60,490 bases of DNA from Chloroflexota bacterium (GTDB lineage: Bacteria > Chloroflexota > Anaerolineae > Anaerolineales > VGOW01), in the NCBI GenBank assembly GCA_016875735.1, contig VGOW01000019.1:1-60490 (forward strand), in the 5' to 3' direction. Position numbers and translations under genes: made by a program. Under the pieces are notes generated by a model. That model did not search any database, was not told where the DNA came from, and was given only the letters and a program-made list of their open reading frames with translations. This document shows positions 32,674 to 39,981 of the stretch, piece after piece. How positions within the stretch are numbered: the first letter of the stretch is position 1; every line of letters starts with the position of its first letter.

Positions 32674-33582
32674 ATGTCTCGCAACATTGCGCGCAGTATT
32701 GGCGCGTTAACACTACTGGCACTGTTTCTCACCCCGCTCGCCGCTTTGGCTCACGAGGAAACGACGGCGGGGAATTACGTCATCGAATACGGCTGGGTGA
32801 ATGAGCCGCCCGTTGCCGGAGAGGCCAACGCCCTCGTGATCAACTTCAGCGCCAAGCCCGAAGAGCACGGCCACGGCGACGTGTCGGGCACGATCAGCCT
32901 CGTCGCCCCCGCCGACAACAGCGCGGCGCAGGGCGACCGCCTCGAAGTGACCATCGCCGTTGAAGGCATCGACGAGCACGACGCCGAGTCTCTGCACTGG
33001 CATCTATACGCCGACGACGAAGAGTTGATCATGCTGCCCCTCAGCCAAACGACGGCAACCGTCACCGGCTTGAGCAACGGCGAACACACGATCAAAGTCG
33101 CCATCGCCGGATCGGATCATTCCGAGATCGGCGAACCGGCGCAGGCCAAGATCACCGTGGAAGGATCATTGGCGATGGGCGAGCCGATGGTGGAAGGGGT
33201 AGAGGCGGGGGGAATGGATCACAGTTCCGGCATCCAAGTTGATGTCTCCGCGTTGAAAGTTGAAATGATCTACGGCGGGCAAACCACCGCGCTCACCCTG
33301 CAACCGCTGGAGGGCGGCAACCCCGGCCACTTCACTGCCCCGTTCACGCCGGAGCGCCCCGGCGTGCATACGCTTCGTCTCACCGGCAAACTCTCCGGCG
33401 ATATGGGCGAGACGGATGTGGATGTCACCGTTGCGCCCGAAGAAGTGGCGCCGTCGCCCGAGTCGCTGGCCGCCGCCTCCAGCGCATCGGCAGGCATCCC
33501 GGTTTGGGTGTACGTCGTCGGCGGTGTTGTGATCGTGGCCGTCGTTGCCGTGGGCGTCTTCGCGCTCGGGCGCAAGAAGTAA
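32674..33582 (+). CDS. Periplasmic, C-terminally anchored protein of the copper gene cluster
   Basis: 302 residues. Signal peptide (1-26, ending PLAALA), so the mature N-terminus is HEETTAGNYV, a His-first terminus like that of copper-binding CopC/YcnI proteins. There are two or three beta-sandwich domains (about 27-165 and 180-255). A His-rich stretch (EEHGHGDVSG) and DHSSGIQVDVSALKVEMIYG follow. A Pro/Ser linker leads to one C-terminal span (about 276-297) with a GRKK stop. AAGGAG precedes the ATG at 32674. It is followed by a CopC-CopD-cytochrome fusion, so a copper-binding or delivery role is likely but not shown. Confidence 0.7.
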   Translation: MSRNIARSIGALTLLALFLTPLAALAHEETTAGNYVIEYGWVNEPPVAGEANALVINFSAKPEEHGHGDVSGTISLVAPADNSAAQGDRLEVTIAVEGIDEHDAESLHWHLYADDEELIMLPLSQTTATVTGLSNGEHTIKVAIAGSDHSEIGEPAQAKITVEGSLAMGEPMVEGVEAGGMDHSSGIQVDVSALKVEMIYGGQTTALTLQPLEGGNPGHFTAPFTPERPGVHTLRLTGKLSGDMGETDVDVTVAPEEVAPSPESLAAASSASAGIPVWVYVVGGVVIVAVVAVGVFALGRKK

Positions 33583-33590
33583 CGCTTTCT

Positions 33591-33659
33591 GCAACGCTTT
33601 CTGTAGTGGCGATTTCAATCGCCTTTTTGCCCGGGCGACTGAAGTCGCCACTACAAACT
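33591..33659. repeat. Palindromic element, GTAGTGGCGATTTCAATCGCC type
   Basis: GTAGTGGCGATTTCAATCGCC faces GGCGACTGAAGTCGCCACTAC across TTTTTGCCCG. It is a 21-bp imperfect inverted repeat that itself contains smaller palindromes. It fills the gap before the CopC-CopD fusion. Confidence 0.7.
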
Positions 33660-33662
33660 TTT

Positions 33663-35849
33663 ATGAAATTTAGACTCGCCGCCATTCTCATTGCTCTCGG
33701 CCTCGCGCTCGCGCTGGCTCTGCCGGTGTTCGCCCACGCTTCGCTTCTGCGCTCCATCCCCGAAGCCAACGCCGCCCTCGACCGCGCCCCCGCGCAGATC
33801 GAGCTGTTCTTCAGCGAAGCGCTCGAACCCTCCTTCAGCTCCATCGTCGTGATCGACTCGAACGGCGCGCAAATGGACAACTTCGACTCCCGAGTCGATC
33901 CTGCCGACGCCACGCGGCTCACGGTCACCCTGCGTTCTTTGCCCGATGGCGTGTACACCGTTTCGTGGCAAGTGCTTTCGGCAGTGGACGGGCATTCCAC
34001 CGCTGGGGCGTTCCCCTTTGCCGTGGGCGACGTGGATGCCGCCGCGCTGGCTAACGCCGAGCGGGCCAGCAAACAGATCAAACTCTCACTCGGCGAAATC
34101 GTGAGCCGCTGGCTGATGTATCTTTCGGCCACCGCGCTCGCTGGCGGCGCGTTGTTCGTGCGCATCGTGTGGCAGCCGACGATCGAGTCGTCGGCCTCCG
34201 AAGTGGAATCGGCAGCCTTCGGTTCGTTGTGGCGGCGGCTCGCCTCCATCGGCATCATCATCTTCGTCATCGCCAATCTTATCGCTCTCCTCATCCATGC
34301 CGGGCAAGCCTCCGGCGCGGAGATCGCCGCGCCGTGGAGCGATGCCGCAAGCAGTGTGCTGTTCAACACGCGCTTCGGGGCGCTGTGGATCGCCCGCATT
34401 GCTCTCGCCTTTGCCCTCGCCGGATTGTTGAGCGAGACTCGCGCGGCGCGCGAACAATGGATTGCCTTCGGCCTCTCGCTGTTGATTCTGCTGACGATCA
34501 GTCTCGGCAGTCACGCCGCCGCCGATCCCCAACCCGCTCTCCCTGTGGCCGCCGATTGGATTCACCTTGCCGCCGCCTCGGTGTGGGTGGGCGGCCTCAC
34601 TCACTTCGTCGCCGCGATGTGGGGACTGCGCCGATTCGATTCATCGGCCCGAACTCAAATCACGGCCCGACTCATCCCGCGCTTCTCGGCGCTGGCTCTC
34701 ATCGGCGTGGGCGCGCTCACCCTCACCGGGCTTTACGCAACGGCTCTGCGCGTTGGCTCGCTGGAGGCGCTCAACTCCACCGTGTACGGGCAGACATTGA
34801 TTGCCAAACTGATTCTCATCGTGCCGATGGTTGGGATCGGCGCGGTAAATCTTTTGGGCGTCACTCCGGCCATGAAAAAAGCCGCCGCCGCTCGAAGCAC
34901 AACGCCGCTCGTCGAGCGTTTCCGAAACATTGTCACCAGTGAATTGACTATCGGCGCGGCGCTGTTTCTCAGTGTCGGCGTCCTCACCTCTCTGCCTCCC
35001 GCGCGAACGACGGCGGGGGATCCGGTGATCGCTCAATCGGCCAACGTTGACGATCTCCGCCTCGATCTCGAAATCACGCCGGGGCGCGTGGGCATCAACA
35101 CGTTTACGTTGGCCGTCGCTTCGGGCGGCCAGCCGGTGCTGGAGGCCAAAGAGGCGCTGCTGCGCTTCACGCCTGCTTCAGGCAAACTGCCGCCCAGCGA
35201 AACGCCGCTGGCGGCGGCGGGCGATGGCCGCTATAGTGTCAAAGGCTCGTACCTCAGCCTGCCCGACGATTGGCAAGTGATGGCCGTGGTGCGGCGCGAG
35301 GGGATGTTCGATGCGTTTGCGATCTTCAATATGAACGTGGGGGCGAGCGCGAAAGCGCAGAGTTACCCGTGGCATCGAGTGGCGGGGGCGCTGCTGCTTC
35401 TCGGCGCGTTGGCTTATTTGTTTGCCTTCAGCACATTGGGGCGAACGTGGAATCAACTTGCCGCTTGGGGGCTGGCTCCGGCGCTGGCGCTGGCGGTTGC
35501 CAGCGTGGTCACATTCAATCGCGCGCCGCCCGTTCAAGCGGCGGGGTTGGTCAATCCCATCCCGCCTAATGCCGCGTCGGTCGCCGCAGGCAAAGCGATC
35601 TATGAATCGAAATGCCTGCCGTGTCACGGCGAAACGGGCAAAGGCGATGGCCCGGTGGGGCTGACCATGAGTCCGCGCCCCGCCGATTTGTCGCTTCACG
35701 CCGTGCTCGGCGTTCACTCCGATGGGCAGTTGTTTTTATGGATCACCGACGGTTTTCCCGGATCGGTCATGCCCGCCTTCCGCGCCGCATTGGCCGAAGA
35801 GGAACGATGGCATGTGGTCAACTATGTTCGCACACTGGCTCCTAAATGA
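33663..35849 (+). CDS. CopC-CopD-cytochrome c fusion protein
   Basis: 728 residues from ATG 33663. The signal peptide ends at PVFA. The mature protein begins HASLLRSIPEANAAL, the CopC copper-binding terminus (H25), and CopC ends near DGHSTAGAFPFAVG (H111). Eight or so membrane spans of a CopD domain follow (about 150-440), with ADWIHLAAASVWVGGLTHF and RFSALALIGVGALTLTGLYA. Then come a YtkA-like extracellular beta domain (about 470-570) and two more spans. The C-terminal cytochrome c domain has CLPCH at 651-655 and a likely axial Met in SVMPAF (703). CopC and CopD handle periplasmic copper and its transfer across the membrane. The joined cytochrome suggests redox coupling, such as Cu(I)/Cu(II) change or delivery to an oxidase. 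Confidence 0.88.
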   Translation: MKFRLAAILIALGLALALALPVFAHASLLRSIPEANAALDRAPAQIELFFSEALEPSFSSIVVIDSNGAQMDNFDSRVDPADATRLTVTLRSLPDGVYTVSWQVLSAVDGHSTAGAFPFAVGDVDAAALANAERASKQIKLSLGEIVSRWLMYLSATALAGGALFVRIVWQPTIESSASEVESAAFGSLWRRLASIGIIIFVIANLIALLIHAGQASGAEIAAPWSDAASSVLFNTRFGALWIARIALAFALAGLLSETRAAREQWIAFGLSLLILLTISLGSHAAADPQPALPVAADWIHLAAASVWVGGLTHFVAAMWGLRRFDSSARTQITARLIPRFSALALIGVGALTLTGLYATALRVGSLEALNSTVYGQTLIAKLILIVPMVGIGAVNLLGVTPAMKKAAAARSTTPLVERFRNIVTSELTIGAALFLSVGVLTSLPPARTTAGDPVIAQSANVDDLRLDLEITPGRVGINTFTLAVASGGQPVLEAKEALLRFTPASGKLPPSETPLAAAGDGRYSVKGSYLSLPDDWQVMAVVRREGMFDAFAIFNMNVGASAKAQSYPWHRVAGALLLLGALAYLFAFSTLGRTWNQLAAWGLAPALALAVASVVTFNRAPPVQAAGLVNPIPPNAASVAAGKAIYESKCLPCHGETGKGDGPVGLTMSPRPADLSLHAVLGVHSDGQLFLWITDGFPGSVMPAFRAALAEEERWHVVNYVRTLAPK

Positions 35850-36012: not shown

Positions 36013-37078
36013 ATTGCTGGCAATCGGGCTTGCCCTCTCGGCGTGCTCCATCGAAATCTCCGACCCAACAGCGGCGGCCACCGCCGCCAGCCAATTGCCC
36101 GGCGCCACCCCCGCGCCCACCCGCGCCCCCACCCTTGCCGCGCCCGCGTGGGAAACACTCGGCCTCACCGGATCGCTGATCTACACACAGGGCGCGCAGG
36201 GGATCAAGAGACTCGACCTCGCCACAGGGAACATCGACTCGGTGTTCACCCCGCCCGAAGATGCATGGCTCACCGCCGCCGCCGTTTCGCCAGACGGCAA
36301 AACGTTGGTGATGGCTTATGCGCCGCCGCCGCCGGCCGGAGAAGTGCAGCTCGGCTACACCAGCCTCTATCAATTCTCCATCGGCAGTGACCCCGCCGCC
36401 GCGCCCGAACCGCTCATCACTCGCAACGATCCGCAGGAATCCTATTTCACTCCGGCGTGGTCGCCCGATGGGCAATACATCTATTACGCCCACTTCATCC
36501 CCGTGCGCGGCTCCGGCGGCAACACATTCAAATACACCCTTGAGCGGATCCGATATTCGCAGGGAGGCCGCCCCGACATCCTCATCGAAGATTCCATTTG
36601 GCCGCGCCTCTCCGCCGACGGAACGAAACTGGCCTATCTCAAATTCGACACCGAGAACTTCAATCAGGAACTTTATATGGCCGACGCCGACGGCAAAAAC
36701 GGCTCGCCGGTTCTGCCGCCGGGCGAGTTTCCGTCGGTGGATGCGCAGTTCTTTTCGCCCGATGGAAAGAGCATCATCTTCAATGCCGTAGGCGAGGGCC
36801 GCTCGCCCGCGCTCTCTTGGCTCGACCGACTCACGGGCGCGCAAATCGCCGAAGCGCACAACGTGCCCTCCGATTGGTGGAGCGTGACACTGGGCGAGAG
36901 CAAAGCCACCCGCCTCACCGAAATTTACGACATGAGCATGTACGGCAACTTTTCGCCCGACGGGCAATATATTGCCTTCACCAGCGCCACCGGCATGCAC
37001 CTCATGAAACCCGATGGCAGCGGCCTCACGCCGCTCGCGCCCATTGATGCGCCGGGAACGGTGGAGTGGGCGCCATGA
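35999..37078 (+). CDS. TolB-like beta-propeller lipoprotein
   Basis: 359 residues from ATG 35999. It has a lipoprotein signal peptide with a lipobox (LALSAC, Cys at about 15). A Thr/Ala/Pro-rich spacer (about 22-50) follows. PD40-type blades come after: VSPDGKTLVMAYAPP, WSPDGQYIYYAHF, LSADGTKLAYLKF, FSPDGKSIIFNAVG and FSPDGQYIAFTSAT. It is a membrane-attached outer-face propeller, perhaps related to the two Big_5 propeller proteins upstream. It overlaps the Clp-RF2 fusion gene by 4 bp (ATGA), so the two are translationally coupled. The role is unknown. Confidence 0.78.
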   Translation: MKTFRLLAIGLALSACSIEISDPTAAATAASQLPGATPAPTRAPTLAAPAWETLGLTGSLIYTQGAQGIKRLDLATGNIDSVFTPPEDAWLTAAAVSPDGKTLVMAYAPPPPAGEVQLGYTSLYQFSIGSDPAAAPEPLITRNDPQESYFTPAWSPDGQYIYYAHFIPVRGSGGNTFKYTLERIRYSQGGRPDILIEDSIWPRLSADGTKLAYLKFDTENFNQELYMADADGKNGSPVLPPGEFPSVDAQFFSPDGKSIIFNAVGEGRSPALSWLDRLTGAQIAEAHNVPSDWWSVTLGESKATRLTEIYDMSMYGNFSPDGQYIAFTSATGMHLMKPDGSGLTPLAPIDAPGTVEWAP

Positions 37079-39981
37079 CCTCCCCTTCCCCCGACTCCCT
37101 CCGCGCGCACCTTTCCAACTTCGCCCAAAACATCACCGAGCGCGCGCAGGCCGGCGGCCAGCCCAGCATCTATTTCCGCGATTCTGAAATCGATCAAATT
37201 CTGCAAGCCCTCGCCTCGCCGCTCAAAGGCCGCGTCGTGGTCATCGGCCCGGCGCGCGTGGGCAAAAGCGCCGTCCTGCAATCGGTGGCGGCGCGGATTC
37301 TCAGCGGCGAGTGCCCGCCCGAACTGGCAGGCAAAGAGGTGTGGCGGCTCACCCCCAATGGCCTGCCCGGCCTCTCGGCGCGCGGCAACTGGCAAGCCGC
37401 GCTCGATCAATTGATGAGCGAATGGTCGAAACACCCGGAGGTCATTCTATACTTCGACGAGATCACTCGCGCCGCCCGACTCGGAAGCTTCGACGACGAC
37501 GAGGGCGGGATCACGCCGGATGTCGCCACCGTGTTGGCCGCCTCCTTCAAACGACTGCCCGGCCTGTGCCTCGCCGAAGCCAACGATTACACGTGGCGGC
37601 GTTTTGCCGATTCGTACGCCGACTACGAACAGCTCTTCCTTCCCGTGCGCGTCGAAGAACCCGACTCGGCGCAGGCGCGGCAGATCATCCATCGCGTCGC
37701 CGAAGACCTCAGCATCCTGCACGGCATCCCCATCGCCGAAGCCGCCATCGAGCGCGCGTTCGATCTCAGCCAGCGCTACTCGCTCGACCGCGCCCAGCCC
37801 GGCAAAACCATCGACGTTCTGCGCGACACGCTGGCCGTAGCCAAAACCGGCGGCGCGCAGCTGATCGCCGACGACGTAACTCGCCGCTTCGGCGAGCAGA
37901 GCGGCCTGCCGCGTATGCTGCTCGACGACACGGTGCCCTTCAACGAAGACGAGGTGCTCAAGTTTTTCCGCGCCCGAGTCCTCGCCCAAGATCAAGCCGT
38001 CGAGGCCATCGTACAATCGCTCAGCCTGCTCAAAGCGCGGGTGAACAACCCGCTGAGGCCAATGGGGGTTTTTCTGTTTCTCGGGCCCACTGGCGTGGGC
38101 AAAACCGAACTGGCCCGCACCCTCGCCGAATACCTCTACAGCAACCGTGACCGCATCGTGCGCTTCAACATGGGCGACTACGCTCACCCGCACCAACACA
38201 CCGAACTGTTTGGCAACCCCTACGCCACCGACGCCATCTATCGCCGCGGGCAACTCACCAACCGCCTCGCGGGCAAAATATTCTCGGTGCTCGTGCTCGA
38301 CGAATTCGAGAAGGCGCACCCCTTCATCTATCAGCGCTTCCTGCAGTTGTTCGACGAAGGCATTCTCATCAACGGCAACGACGAAACGGTGAACCTGCGC
38401 AACTCCATTATCATCCTCACCTCGAACTTCGGCGCGCAGTTGATGCAGCAAGAAAAACTCGGCTTCAAGCAGGGCGAAACAATGGAAGCCCGCGAGAAGC
38501 GCGTGCTCTCCGAAACCGAAGACTACTTTACCCCCGAATTCATGAACCGCATCGACGCGGTGTGCATCTTCCACCCGCTGAGCCGCGCGGTGATGGCCGA
38601 CATCGCCCGCCGCGAGATCGGTGACTTGCTCAAACGTGACGGCCTCACCCGCCGAAACTTCGAAGCCGAGATCGCCGACGAAGTGATCGAGCAAGTGGTG
38701 GCGCTCGGCTACAGCGCCCGTTACGGCGCGCGCTACCTCAAACGGCAGATCGAAAAGACGATCACCTATCCGCTCGCCCGCGAGATCAACGCCATGAAGC
38801 CCGAGGCCTCCGGCGGCTCGATCCGACTCTACATGCGGCACGGGCGCATTCATTCGGGATACTACCCGCCCGCCGCCGAACCGGCGGCTCAGCCCGCCCC
38901 CGCTCTCCGCAGTGAGCCGACTCTGACTCTGATCGAGATCCGCGAAGCCCTGCCCATTCTCGCCGCGCGCGTGGAAGCGCTGGAAGAATTGCACGGCTTC
39001 GCCGAAGCGCAGGCCGAACGCGCGGCCATTCTTTCCGAAATGTCCGATGTGGGCTTTTGGAATGATCAATCATCGGCGCGGCGAAAACTCGACGCGTATC
39101 AGCGCGCCTCGGGCACGGTGGAAATGCTCAACAGTCTGCGGAACGCGCTCGACGCGCTGACCGATGGGGCGCAATCGGAGTCGGCCTCTCTTGAGTCGTT
39201 GGCGCGCCCGTATCGCTATCTGCTCAACGAACTGCCGCGCATCGAGTTCACTTCATGGCTCAGCGGCCCGCGCGATTCGCGCGGCGCGTATCTGCGCATC
39301 GGAGTCAAACACAAGAGCGCGGCGGCGCGGCAGTGGGCAGGCGCGCTGGCGAAAATGTATCTCGGTTGGGCGCGCCAGCGCGGGTTTGCGGCCAGCCTGC
39401 TCGGCGAAGACCTTTCGCTCGAGGGGCGCAGTTTTTCGGTGATGATGGTGGTGAGCGGGTTCGGCGCGTATGGGTTGTTGCAGGGGGAGACGGGCGCGCA
39501 CAAACTGGTGCAGACGGTGAAGGCCGCCGGGCAAGAGTCGCTTCAGCGCATCGGCGCCAACGTAAGTGTTCTGCCCGAACTCGACGACGACGATCTGCCG
39601 CCGCCGCCCCCCAACTTGGAAGTGAGCGTAAAAGAAATCAACCGGGGCGGACTCATCATCCCGCGACTCACGGCGCAGGCGGCGATCCGCCACCCCGCCA
39701 CCGACCATCGACTCACCCTCGCCAGCAACCTGCCGCCCGACGATCTGGCCGCCGAAGCGACTCGGATTCTGTGGACGGAGGCCTTCCTCGACGGCGAAGG
39801 CGAATCGCGCCCGGCGCCGCCGCCCGGCGGCATCGTGCGCACCTACGCCCGATCAACCAAAGAGAAGGGCGTGCATGATCATCGCACCGGCCAACGCACC
39901 ATCAAAGTCAAGCAGGTGCTCGACGGCGAAGCGCTGCAGGAATTTCTGAACGAGGGGTTGAAACAGAGAAGCGGGGTGTGA
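37075..39981 (+). CDS. ClpB-like double AAA+ ATPase fused to a GGQ-less RF2-like module
   Basis: 968 residues from ATG 37075 (ATGA overlap with the lipoprotein gene). A GTG at 37066 is also possible. The first AAA+ domain has Walker A GPARVGKS (58-65) and Walker B VILYFDE (123-129), and ends in a ClpB-D1-like LFLPVRVEEPDSAQARQII region. The second is complete: Walker A GPTGVGKT (337-344), FLFLGPTG lead, an aromatic pore-loop-like GNPYATDA, VLVLDEFEKAHP, sensor-1 TSN (449-451), NRID Arg finger (491-492) and sensor-2 GAR (551-553). There is no Clp N-domain or middle domain. From about 617 the sequence follows release factor 2: SDVGFWNDQSSARRKL, LAKMYLGWARQRGF, FGAYGLLQGETGAHKLVQTV, VLPELDDDD and the closing VRTYARSTKEKGVHDHRTG. 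The GGQ peptidyl-hydrolase loop is replaced by INRGGLIIPRLTAQAAI. Binding to the ribosomal A site without hydrolysis, coupled to an unfoldase, is the inference. Confidence 0.85.
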   Translation: MTSPSPDSLRAHLSNFAQNITERAQAGGQPSIYFRDSEIDQILQALASPLKGRVVVIGPARVGKSAVLQSVAARILSGECPPELAGKEVWRLTPNGLPGLSARGNWQAALDQLMSEWSKHPEVILYFDEITRAARLGSFDDDEGGITPDVATVLAASFKRLPGLCLAEANDYTWRRFADSYADYEQLFLPVRVEEPDSAQARQIIHRVAEDLSILHGIPIAEAAIERAFDLSQRYSLDRAQPGKTIDVLRDTLAVAKTGGAQLIADDVTRRFGEQSGLPRMLLDDTVPFNEDEVLKFFRARVLAQDQAVEAIVQSLSLLKARVNNPLRPMGVFLFLGPTGVGKTELARTLAEYLYSNRDRIVRFNMGDYAHPHQHTELFGNPYATDAIYRRGQLTNRLAGKIFSVLVLDEFEKAHPFIYQRFLQLFDEGILINGNDETVNLRNSIIILTSNFGAQLMQQEKLGFKQGETMEAREKRVLSETEDYFTPEFMNRIDAVCIFHPLSRAVMADIARREIGDLLKRDGLTRRNFEAEIADEVIEQVVALGYSARYGARYLKRQIEKTITYPLAREINAMKPEASGGSIRLYMRHGRIHSGYYPPAAEPAAQPAPALRSEPTLTLIEIREALPILAARVEALEELHGFAEAQAERAAILSEMSDVGFWNDQSSARRKLDAYQRASGTVEMLNSLRNALDALTDGAQSESASLESLARPYRYLLNELPRIEFTSWLSGPRDSRGAYLRIGVKHKSAAARQWAGALAKMYLGWARQRGFAASLLGEDLSLEGRSFSVMMVVSGFGAYGLLQGETGAHKLVQTVKAAGQESLQRIGANVSVLPELDDDDLPPPPPNLEVSVKEINRGGLIIPRLTAQAAIRHPATDHRLTLASNLPPDDLAAEATRILWTEAFLDGEGESRPAPPPGGIVRTYARSTKEKGVHDHRTGQRTIKVKQVLDGEALQEFLNEGLKQRSGV

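What the first reader, a model, noticed from the sequence alone, without database searches (positions are those of the whole stretch)
37075..39981. ClpB-like unfoldase fused to a release-factor-2-like module without GGQ
The sequence shows two AAA+ domains (the second with Walker A/B, sensor 1, Arg finger and sensor 2 intact), with no Clp N- or M-domain. They are followed by about 350 residues that track RF2 from its helical N-terminus to its C-terminal VRTYARSTKEKGVHDHRTG, with the GGQ loop replaced by INRGGLIIPRLTAQ. RF2 without GGQ can in principle occupy the ribosomal A site but not free the peptide. A Clp-type motor on the same chain suggests a ribosome-rescue or nascent-chain-extraction machine. 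It is coupled by ATGA to a TolB-like lipoprotein gene. I cannot check whether this architecture has been described.
Basis: partly seen in the sequence, partly recalled or inferred. Interest (0 to 1): 0.88.

Follow-up and report, generated by a model that had tools for sequence, protein, structure and literature searches.

The report
Clp motor fused to dead release factor
This bacterial gene joins a ClpC-like protein-unfolding motor to a copy of the translation release factor RF2 that has lost both its stop-codon reader and its peptide-releasing site, and the same undescribed fusion is conserved in several bacterial phyla, which suggests the old release factor was turned into a built-in targeting arm for a protein-remodelling or protein-degrading machine.

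Summary
Window 37075-39981 (+) encodes one 968-residue protein: two AAA+ modules without Clp N- or M-domain, then about 350 residues with the full fold of release factor 2. It is no assembly join. The same fusion occurs in close relatives, other Chloroflexota families and isolates such as Herpetosiphon and Corallococcus; a 69-row alignment spans seven or more phyla. I found no description of it in the papers I could search.

The interpretation needs correcting. GGQ is lost, but so are the stop-codon-reading elements (SPF loop, alpha5 tip, stacking His), and many relatives have lost the whole GGQ domain, so A-site docking is not implied. The motor is closer to ClpC than ClpB: it keeps the [LIV]GF tripeptide that docks ClpC/ClpA/ClpX on ClpP, at the same place and predicted flexible. 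D2 catalytic residues are invariant (69/69); D1 is mostly dead and the canonical D2 pore loop GYVG is gone. The link to the TolB-like gene is not conserved.

Best reading (0.4): a ClpP-competent ClpC-type ATPase whose RF2-derived tail is a built-in targeting or adaptor arm, perhaps for ribosomes. Ribosome binding is untested. Functional claims are inference from sequence and predicted structure.

The parts
37075..39981 (+). whole gene: ClpC-type double AAA+ / RF2-like fusion, 968 aa (alternative GTG start at 37066)
   Evidence: model pLDDT 90.2
37117..37854 (+). AAA+ module 1 (D1, residues 15-260): Walker A intact; Walker B DE present here but its Glu is lost in 66 of 69 aligned rows; canonical [YF]RG pore loop absent (SARG)
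37927..38574 (+). AAA+ module 2 (D2 large domain, residues 285-500): all catalytic residues invariant in the family; pore loop GYVG replaced (FGNPYATDA)
38458..38466 (+). LGF tripeptide (462-464) at the position of the ClpA IGL / ClpC LGF ClpP-docking loop; model residues 461-464 have pLDDT under 50
   Evidence: motif described in PMC8745299 and PMC12521514
38578..38871 (+). ClpB/ClpC-type D2-small domain (502-599)
38872..38925 (+). low-confidence Ala/Pro-rich linker between motor and RF2-like module (600-617)
38926..39255 (+). RF2 domain 1-like helical bundle (618-727)
39277..39588 (+). RF2 domain 2-like (735-838, PCRF core): keeps invariant G795, E805, G807, H809
39514..39549 (+). degenerate stop-codon-reading loop (SPF...HTS of RF2 replaced, residues 814-825)
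39610..39798 (+). remnant of RF2 domain 3 (846-908); absent in many relatives
39646..39654 (+). GGL (858-860) in place of GGQ
39832..39978 (+). RF2 domain 4-like C-terminus (920-968): invariant R922, Y924, D935, G951

Best explanation
A ClpC-type AAA+ ATPase, able to dock on ClpP, that carries its own adaptor: an RF2-derived C-terminal module that has lost stop-codon reading and peptidyl-tRNA hydrolysis and was kept as a binding arm. Proposed cycle: the RF2-like arm holds a partner (best guess: the ribosome's factor-binding region or a protein that normally contacts RF2); D2 hydrolyses ATP, with D1 mostly a nucleotide-binding assembly ring; the held protein is pulled or remodelled and, when the [LIV]GF loops engage ClpP, degraded. 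Shown: the fusion, the RF2 fold (predicted), loss of both RF2 active sites, D2 catalytic conservation, conservation of the GF tripeptide, ClpP in the genome. Inferred: hexamer, ClpP docking, threading, the identity of the partner, any ribosome contact.
For: The fusion is one clade: its AAA part is separated from ClpA/B/C of the same order and E. coli by a branch of length 1.19 with SH-aLRT 100, and its C-terminal part from RF1+RF2 by a branch with support 99. D2 Walker A, Walker B, sensor 1, Arg finger and sensor 2 are 69/69. [LIVM]GF at the ClpA/ClpC docking-loop position: G 68/69, F 63/69, L/I/V/M 58/69 before it, in a loop otherwise variable and modelled as disordered; the genome's own Clp paralogue L123 has LGF at the same place, E. 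coli ClpB and the Anaerolineae ClpB-like controls do not. Full-length model: Foldseek's best hit is ClpC-ClpP, and ClpC and ClpB chains fill the top of the list; VIA best is ClpC of MecA/ClpC/ClpP, Z 32.9, 560 residues, rmsd 5.7. ClpP present in all 8 genomes tested. RF2 chassis under selection: G795, E805, G807, H809, R922, Y924, D935, G951 are invariant and identical to E. coli RF2 G185, E195, G197, H199, R324, Y326, D335, G351. The genome has separate canonical RF2 and RF1, so this is not the cell's terminator.
Against: No interaction was tested. The canonical pore-loop aromatics are altered: D2 GYVG is lost throughout, and the D1 aromatic is absent in the window clade, although 67 of 69 rows keep some aromatic in one of the two loops by a loose criterion, so processive threading is uncertain. 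The RF2 module hangs from the D2 side that faces ClpP and could hinder docking. The GF tripeptide could be an ancestral remnant or bind something else. ClpP is nearly universal, so its presence is weak support. No conserved neighbouring gene points to a pathway.
Confidence: 0.4

Rival explanations
1. RF2-tail exaptation without ClpP and without the ribosome: the module became an RNA- or protein-binding or oligomer-stabilising domain, as in plastid PrfB3, and the AAA+ ring is a remodelling (disaggregase-like or non-threading) ATPase.
For: SPF and GGQ both lost, as in PrfB3, which lost both and binds petB 3'UTR (PMC5897788). Many relatives have lost domain 3 entirely. D2 pore loop non-canonical and D1 Walker B Glu lost in 66 of 69 rows. 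Several relatives (pseudomonadotal, acidobacterial and others) carry a predicted N-terminal membrane anchor, which fits poorly with a free A-site factor.
Against: Strong conservation of the ClpP-docking tripeptide would then be unexplained; the whole RF2 fold including domain 1 is kept.
Confidence: 0.3
2. Ribosome rescue or nascent-chain extraction: the dead RF2 module occupies the A site of stalled ribosomes and the motor extracts the nascent chain, mRNA or a factor.
For: RF2 fold matched by ribosome-bound RF2 structures (5mdw Z 28.0, 6ost Z 25.7); domain 1, domain 2 core and domain 4 retained. A eukaryotic analogy: Vms1, a release-factor-superfamily protein of unrelated fold, works with the AAA+ Cdc48 (PMC6514570).
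Against: Residues equivalent to those that contact the stop codon are lost: alpha5 tip G137 2/47 and E140 5/47, SPF 0-1/47, stacking His H214 0/47 (RF1 contacts listed in PMC3974865). GGQ domain missing in many members. No translation gene linked. Six copies per hexamer are awkward for one A site (inference).
Confidence: 0.2
3. Degradation of termination machinery: the RF2 mimic recruits RF2 partners (such as PrmC, RF3 or the uL11 stalk) or competes with RF2 to regulate termination under stress.
For: Retained RF2 fold with both active tips removed would suit a decoy.
Against: PrmC recognises the GGQ domain (established knowledge), which is eroded or absent here; no genetic link.
Confidence: 0.08
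4. Artefact: two genes fused by assembly error or chance similarity.
For: None found.
Against: Fusion in many independent genomes including named isolates; PCRF E=3e-17; fold match Z 28.0.
Confidence: 0.01

Closest known systems
ClpC (partner of ClpP; S. aureus MecA/ClpC/ClpP, PMC12521514; M. tuberculosis ClpC1)
   Same: Two AAA+ modules; D2 catalytic set; [LIV]GF-type docking loop at the same position; best structural match of the motor
   Different: No N-domain or M-domain; D1 mostly without Walker B Glu; D2 GYVG pore loop replaced; C-terminal RF2-like module; outside the canonical clade
ClpB/Hsp104 disaggregase
   Same: Best NCBIfam score of the AAA part (329.9 bits), ClpB_D2-small domain
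   Different: No M-domain, far below ClpB cut-off (1232), carries the GF tripeptide ClpB lacks
Bacterial release factor RF2 (prfB)
   Same: Fold of domains 1, 2 and 4, remnant of 3; eight family-invariant residues identical in E. coli RF2
   Different: SPF, alpha5 tip, stacking His and GGQ all lost; fused to a motor; outside the RF1/RF2 clade
Plastid PrfB3 (PMC5897788)
   Same: RF2 relative that lost SPF and GGQ and took a non-termination role
   Different: Stand-alone, no AAA+ motor; sequence relation not tested here
Vms1/ANKZF1 with Cdc48 (PMC6514570)
   Same: A release-factor-superfamily protein working with an AAA+ unfoldase
   Different: Eukaryotic, unrelated RF fold (aeRF1 type), partner by interaction not fusion

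Membership tests
Class I release factor RF2 | RF2 fold (PCRF core, domains 1, 2, 4) | tested here: met
   Pfam PCRF 3e-17; 5mdw Z 28.0, 328 residues, rmsd 4.3
Class I release factor RF2 | GGQ catalytic motif | tested here: not met
   GGL in the window; glutamine absent family-wide bar one chance VGQ; domain 3 missing in many
Class I release factor RF2 | stop-codon reading (SPF, alpha5 tip, stacking His) | tested here: not met
Class I release factor RF2 | NCBIfam prfB cut-off 370 bits | tested here: not met
   102 bits; the genome's own RF2 scores 483.7
ClpC/ClpA-type ClpP-partner ATPase | two AAA+ modules with catalytic D2 | tested here: met
ClpC/ClpA-type ClpP-partner ATPase | [LIV]-G-[FL] ClpP-docking loop | tested here: met
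   motif definition PMC8745299
ClpC/ClpA-type ClpP-partner ATPase | GYVG D2 pore loop | tested here: not met
ClpC/ClpA-type ClpP-partner ATPase | Clp N-domain | tested here: not met
   no Clp_N match
ClpC/ClpA-type ClpP-partner ATPase | position inside the canonical ClpA/B/C clade | tested here: not met
ClpC/ClpA-type ClpP-partner ATPase | physical docking and stimulation of ClpP | not testable with these tools
   needs purified proteins
ClpB disaggregase | M-domain | tested here: not met
   D1-D2 spacing 279 vs 395 in EcClpB
ClpB disaggregase | NCBIfam ClpB cut-off 1232 bits | tested here: not met
   329.9 bits
Ribosome rescue factor | binding to stalled ribosomes | not testable with these tools
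   needs ribosome binding assays
Anti-phage defence system | dedicated match in PADLOC or conserved defence neighbours | tested here: inconclusive
   only generic AAA+ hits (DolB 110 bits) over the D2 motor; no conserved neighbour

The most novel reading that the evidence does not exclude
A widespread, undescribed class of bacterial AAA+ machines in which a Clp-type protease ATPase is targeted to ribosomes or termination complexes by a catalytically dead and codon-blind release factor on the same chain: a bacterial one-chain counterpart of the eukaryotic pairing of a release-factor-like protein with Cdc48.
Probability: 0.22. Interest if true: 0.92.

Novelty: new variant of a known kind. Interest (0 to 1): 0.7.

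Why it matters
It shows that an RF2-like protein was fused to a Clp-type motor and kept over deep bacterial evolution after losing both functions that define a release factor. If the tail still finds ribosomes or RF2 partners, it would be a direct physical link between translation and Clp proteolysis in bacteria. If it does not, it is a clear case of a translation factor re-used as a protein-targeting domain. The family occurs in named isolates (Herpetosiphon giganteus, Corallococcus, Pyxidicoccus, Archangium, Lysobacter, Ulvibacterium), so it can be tested.

Tried and rejected
Viral contigs: 2 pattern matches, no relative. Plasmids: no record covers 80% of a family protein; hits of about 60% are the AAA part, annotated as ClpA where annotated. 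Operon partner: none conserved across 80 loci; the TolB-like (PD40) gene is adjacent only in the window, lies about 1.5 kb upstream in the congener G002, and is not detected at the other loci searched. Defence: only generic AAA matches. Literature: searches for PCRF with AAA, Clp or fusion found no description; Burroughs and Aravind 2019 does not contain the words PCRF or ClpB. These cover only open-licence papers. The C-terminal tree places the family outside RF1+RF2 rather than inside RF2, so 'derived from RF2' rests on profile scores (RF2 102 bits vs RF1 40). The first control parsing failed and was replaced.
Full report
1. The observation. Window 37075-39981 (+) is a single open frame of 968 residues beginning at ATG 37075, overlapping the stop of the preceding gene as ATGA; a GTG start at 37066 is also possible. 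Pfam finds a ClpC/ClpB-type double AAA+ (AAA_16 and AAA_lid_9 in D1; AAA_2 and ClpB_D2-small in D2) and then a PCRF domain at E=3e-17 over 648-813, but no RF-1 (GGQ) domain. Against PDB sequences the C-terminal 373 residues match E. coli RF2 almost from end to end, E=1.6e-20. Clp N-domain and M-domain are absent.

2. Not an artefact. The same fusion was found at 71, 66, 57 and 54% identity in other genomes of the genus and order, in another family of the class, one member being a single-contig genome, and, by a scan of GTDB contigs with a D2 alignment, in Chloroflexota (including Herpetosiphon giganteus DSM 589), Myxococcota (Corallococcus, Myxococcus, Pyxidicoccus, Archangium, Hyalangium), Planctomycetota, Acidobacteriota, Armatimonadota, Bacteroidota (Ulvibacterium marinum), Pseudomonadota (Hyphomicrobium, Lysobacter) and MAGs labelled Eisenbacteria and Krumholzibacteriota. 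75 of the 80 loci have an RF2-like C-terminal match in the same frame; the exceptions are L064 and L100 (frames ending soon after D2), L081 (200 residues after D2) and L083 and L101 (about 400 residues that do not match the profile). The list was cut at 80 of 470 relatives, so frequency is a lower bound. Distribution is patchy: about 16 of 400 Chloroflexota species genomes show a long single-frame match by my reading, 6 of 298 of the class at a strict threshold, and one genome of the same genus (G003, 92% complete) had only Clp-paralogue-strength matches. The 69-row alignment A5 contains at least one duplicate pair (L024 and L033 are the same contig).

3. The motor. In A5 all D2 catalytic positions tested (Walker A K343/T344, Walker B D409/E410, sensor 1 N451, Arg finger R492, sensor 2 R553) are 69/69. 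D1 keeps its Walker A lysine (69/69), but the Walker B Glu is present in only 3 of 69 (the window protein is one of the three), so D1 probably binds but mostly does not hydrolyse ATP. The D2 pore-loop motif GYVG, present in the ClpA, ClpB and ClpC controls (GYI in two), is replaced in the whole family. Two patterns are seen: members with an N-terminal extension keep a D1 loop of the type AGxxY[IF]G, and the window-type members lose it but have an aromatic in D2 at FGxP[YWH]. By the criterion used, 67 of 69 keep an aromatic in one or the other; the D2 criterion is loose (any aromatic within eight positions), so this is only suggestive. One-ring threading is therefore possible, not shown.

4. 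The ClpP clue. At the place of the ClpA IGL loop and the ClpC LGF loop the family has [LIVM]GF: G463 in 68/69, F464 in 63/69, L/I/V/M at 462 in 58/69, while the flanking positions are variable. E. coli ClpB and the Anaerolineae ClpB-like controls L010, L015 and L019 lack it; the genome's own Clp paralogues L123 and L124 have it. The AlphaFold model (mean pLDDT 90.2) is disordered at 461-464, as expected of these loops, which are flexible and dock [LIV]-G-[FL] into ClpP pockets; mutation of this motif abolishes the ClpC-ClpP interaction (PMC8745299, PMC12521514). ClpP is present in all eight genomes tested. Foldseek's best full-length match is a ClpC-ClpP model, with ClpC and ClpB chains filling the list, and VIA gives ClpC of MecA/ClpC/ClpP, Z 32.9, 560 residues, rmsd 5.7. 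In the AAA tree the family and ClpA/B/C are separated by a branch of 1.19 with SH-aLRT 100; it is not inside any canonical Clp group.

5. The RF2-like module. Its model (pLDDT 94.3) fits pre-accommodated RF2 (5mdw) with Z 28.0, 328 residues, rmsd 4.3, and free RF2 of E. coli and Thermus with Z about 25. GGQ is GGL; the catalytic glutamine is absent family-wide except one chance VGQ; many members lack domain 3 altogether. Residues equivalent to those that read the stop codon are lost as well: G137 2/47, E140 5/47 at the alpha5 tip, SPF 0-1/47, stacking His H214 0/47 (RF1 contacts from PMC3974865). What is invariant in the family is a set of RF2 residues outside these tips: G185, E195, G197, H199, R324, Y326, D335 and G351 in E. 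coli numbering. Whether these are only structural I could not tell. The tree separates the family from RF1+RF2 (support 99), without resolving whether it arose within RF2. The genome has its own intact RF2 and RF1.

6. Surroundings. The upstream gene is a PD40 (TolB-like) protein and the downstream ones are a response regulator with GAF, a glucose/sorbosone dehydrogenase and a GNAT protein on the other strand. In the congener G002 the PD40 gene lies about 1.5 kb upstream of the fusion and is not coupled; only general synteny is shared. No neighbour is conserved across 80 loci. Several members, among them Hyphomicrobium and Lysobacter, have a predicted N-terminal membrane anchor, and an Armatimonadetes member has HEAT repeats; the window protein has neither. 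The variable N-terminus and constant motor plus tail fit a machine placed in different cell locations (inference).

7. Mechanism. The best-supported reading is a ClpP-competent ClpC-type ATPase with a built-in RF2-derived adaptor. The alternatives are a non-ribosomal exaptation as in PrfB3, which also lost SPF and GGQ (PMC5897788), and ribosome rescue as first proposed. Sequence and predicted structure cannot separate these; the experiments listed would. No function has been shown.

8. Novelty. No paper held here describes the architecture, but the library covers open-licence papers only and automatic domain databases may list it. Both halves are known kinds; the combination, the double loss of RF2 functions and the breadth of conservation are, as far as I could find, undescribed.

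Noticed in passing
L075 (CAMAWH010000018.1): Contig titled Klebsiella pneumoniae MaH-04nov19-8 carries a member that groups with Myxococcota in the tree; probably a mislabelled MAG.
   Followed up: partly
window 33504-35849 (+): CopC, CopD and cytochrome c domains in one 781-residue protein.
   Followed up: no
L083, L101 (Planctomycetota): About 400 residues follow D2 but do not match the RF2-like profile; either diverged or another module.
   Followed up: no
L061 residues 1-215, and L063, L069, L070, L073, L074, L077: Long-form Chloroflexota members have an N-terminal domain of about 200 residues; L061's has no Pfam match.
   Followed up: no
L053, L062, L068: Very long open frames (430-720 aa) upstream of D1; could be stop-less high-GC frames or real extra domains.
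   Followed up: no
G006:C406:6-194 and other short prfB-like matches: Separate short release-factor-like fragments in several genomes (72-175 aa frames), perhaps ArfB-type proteins or contig-edge pieces.
   Followed up: no
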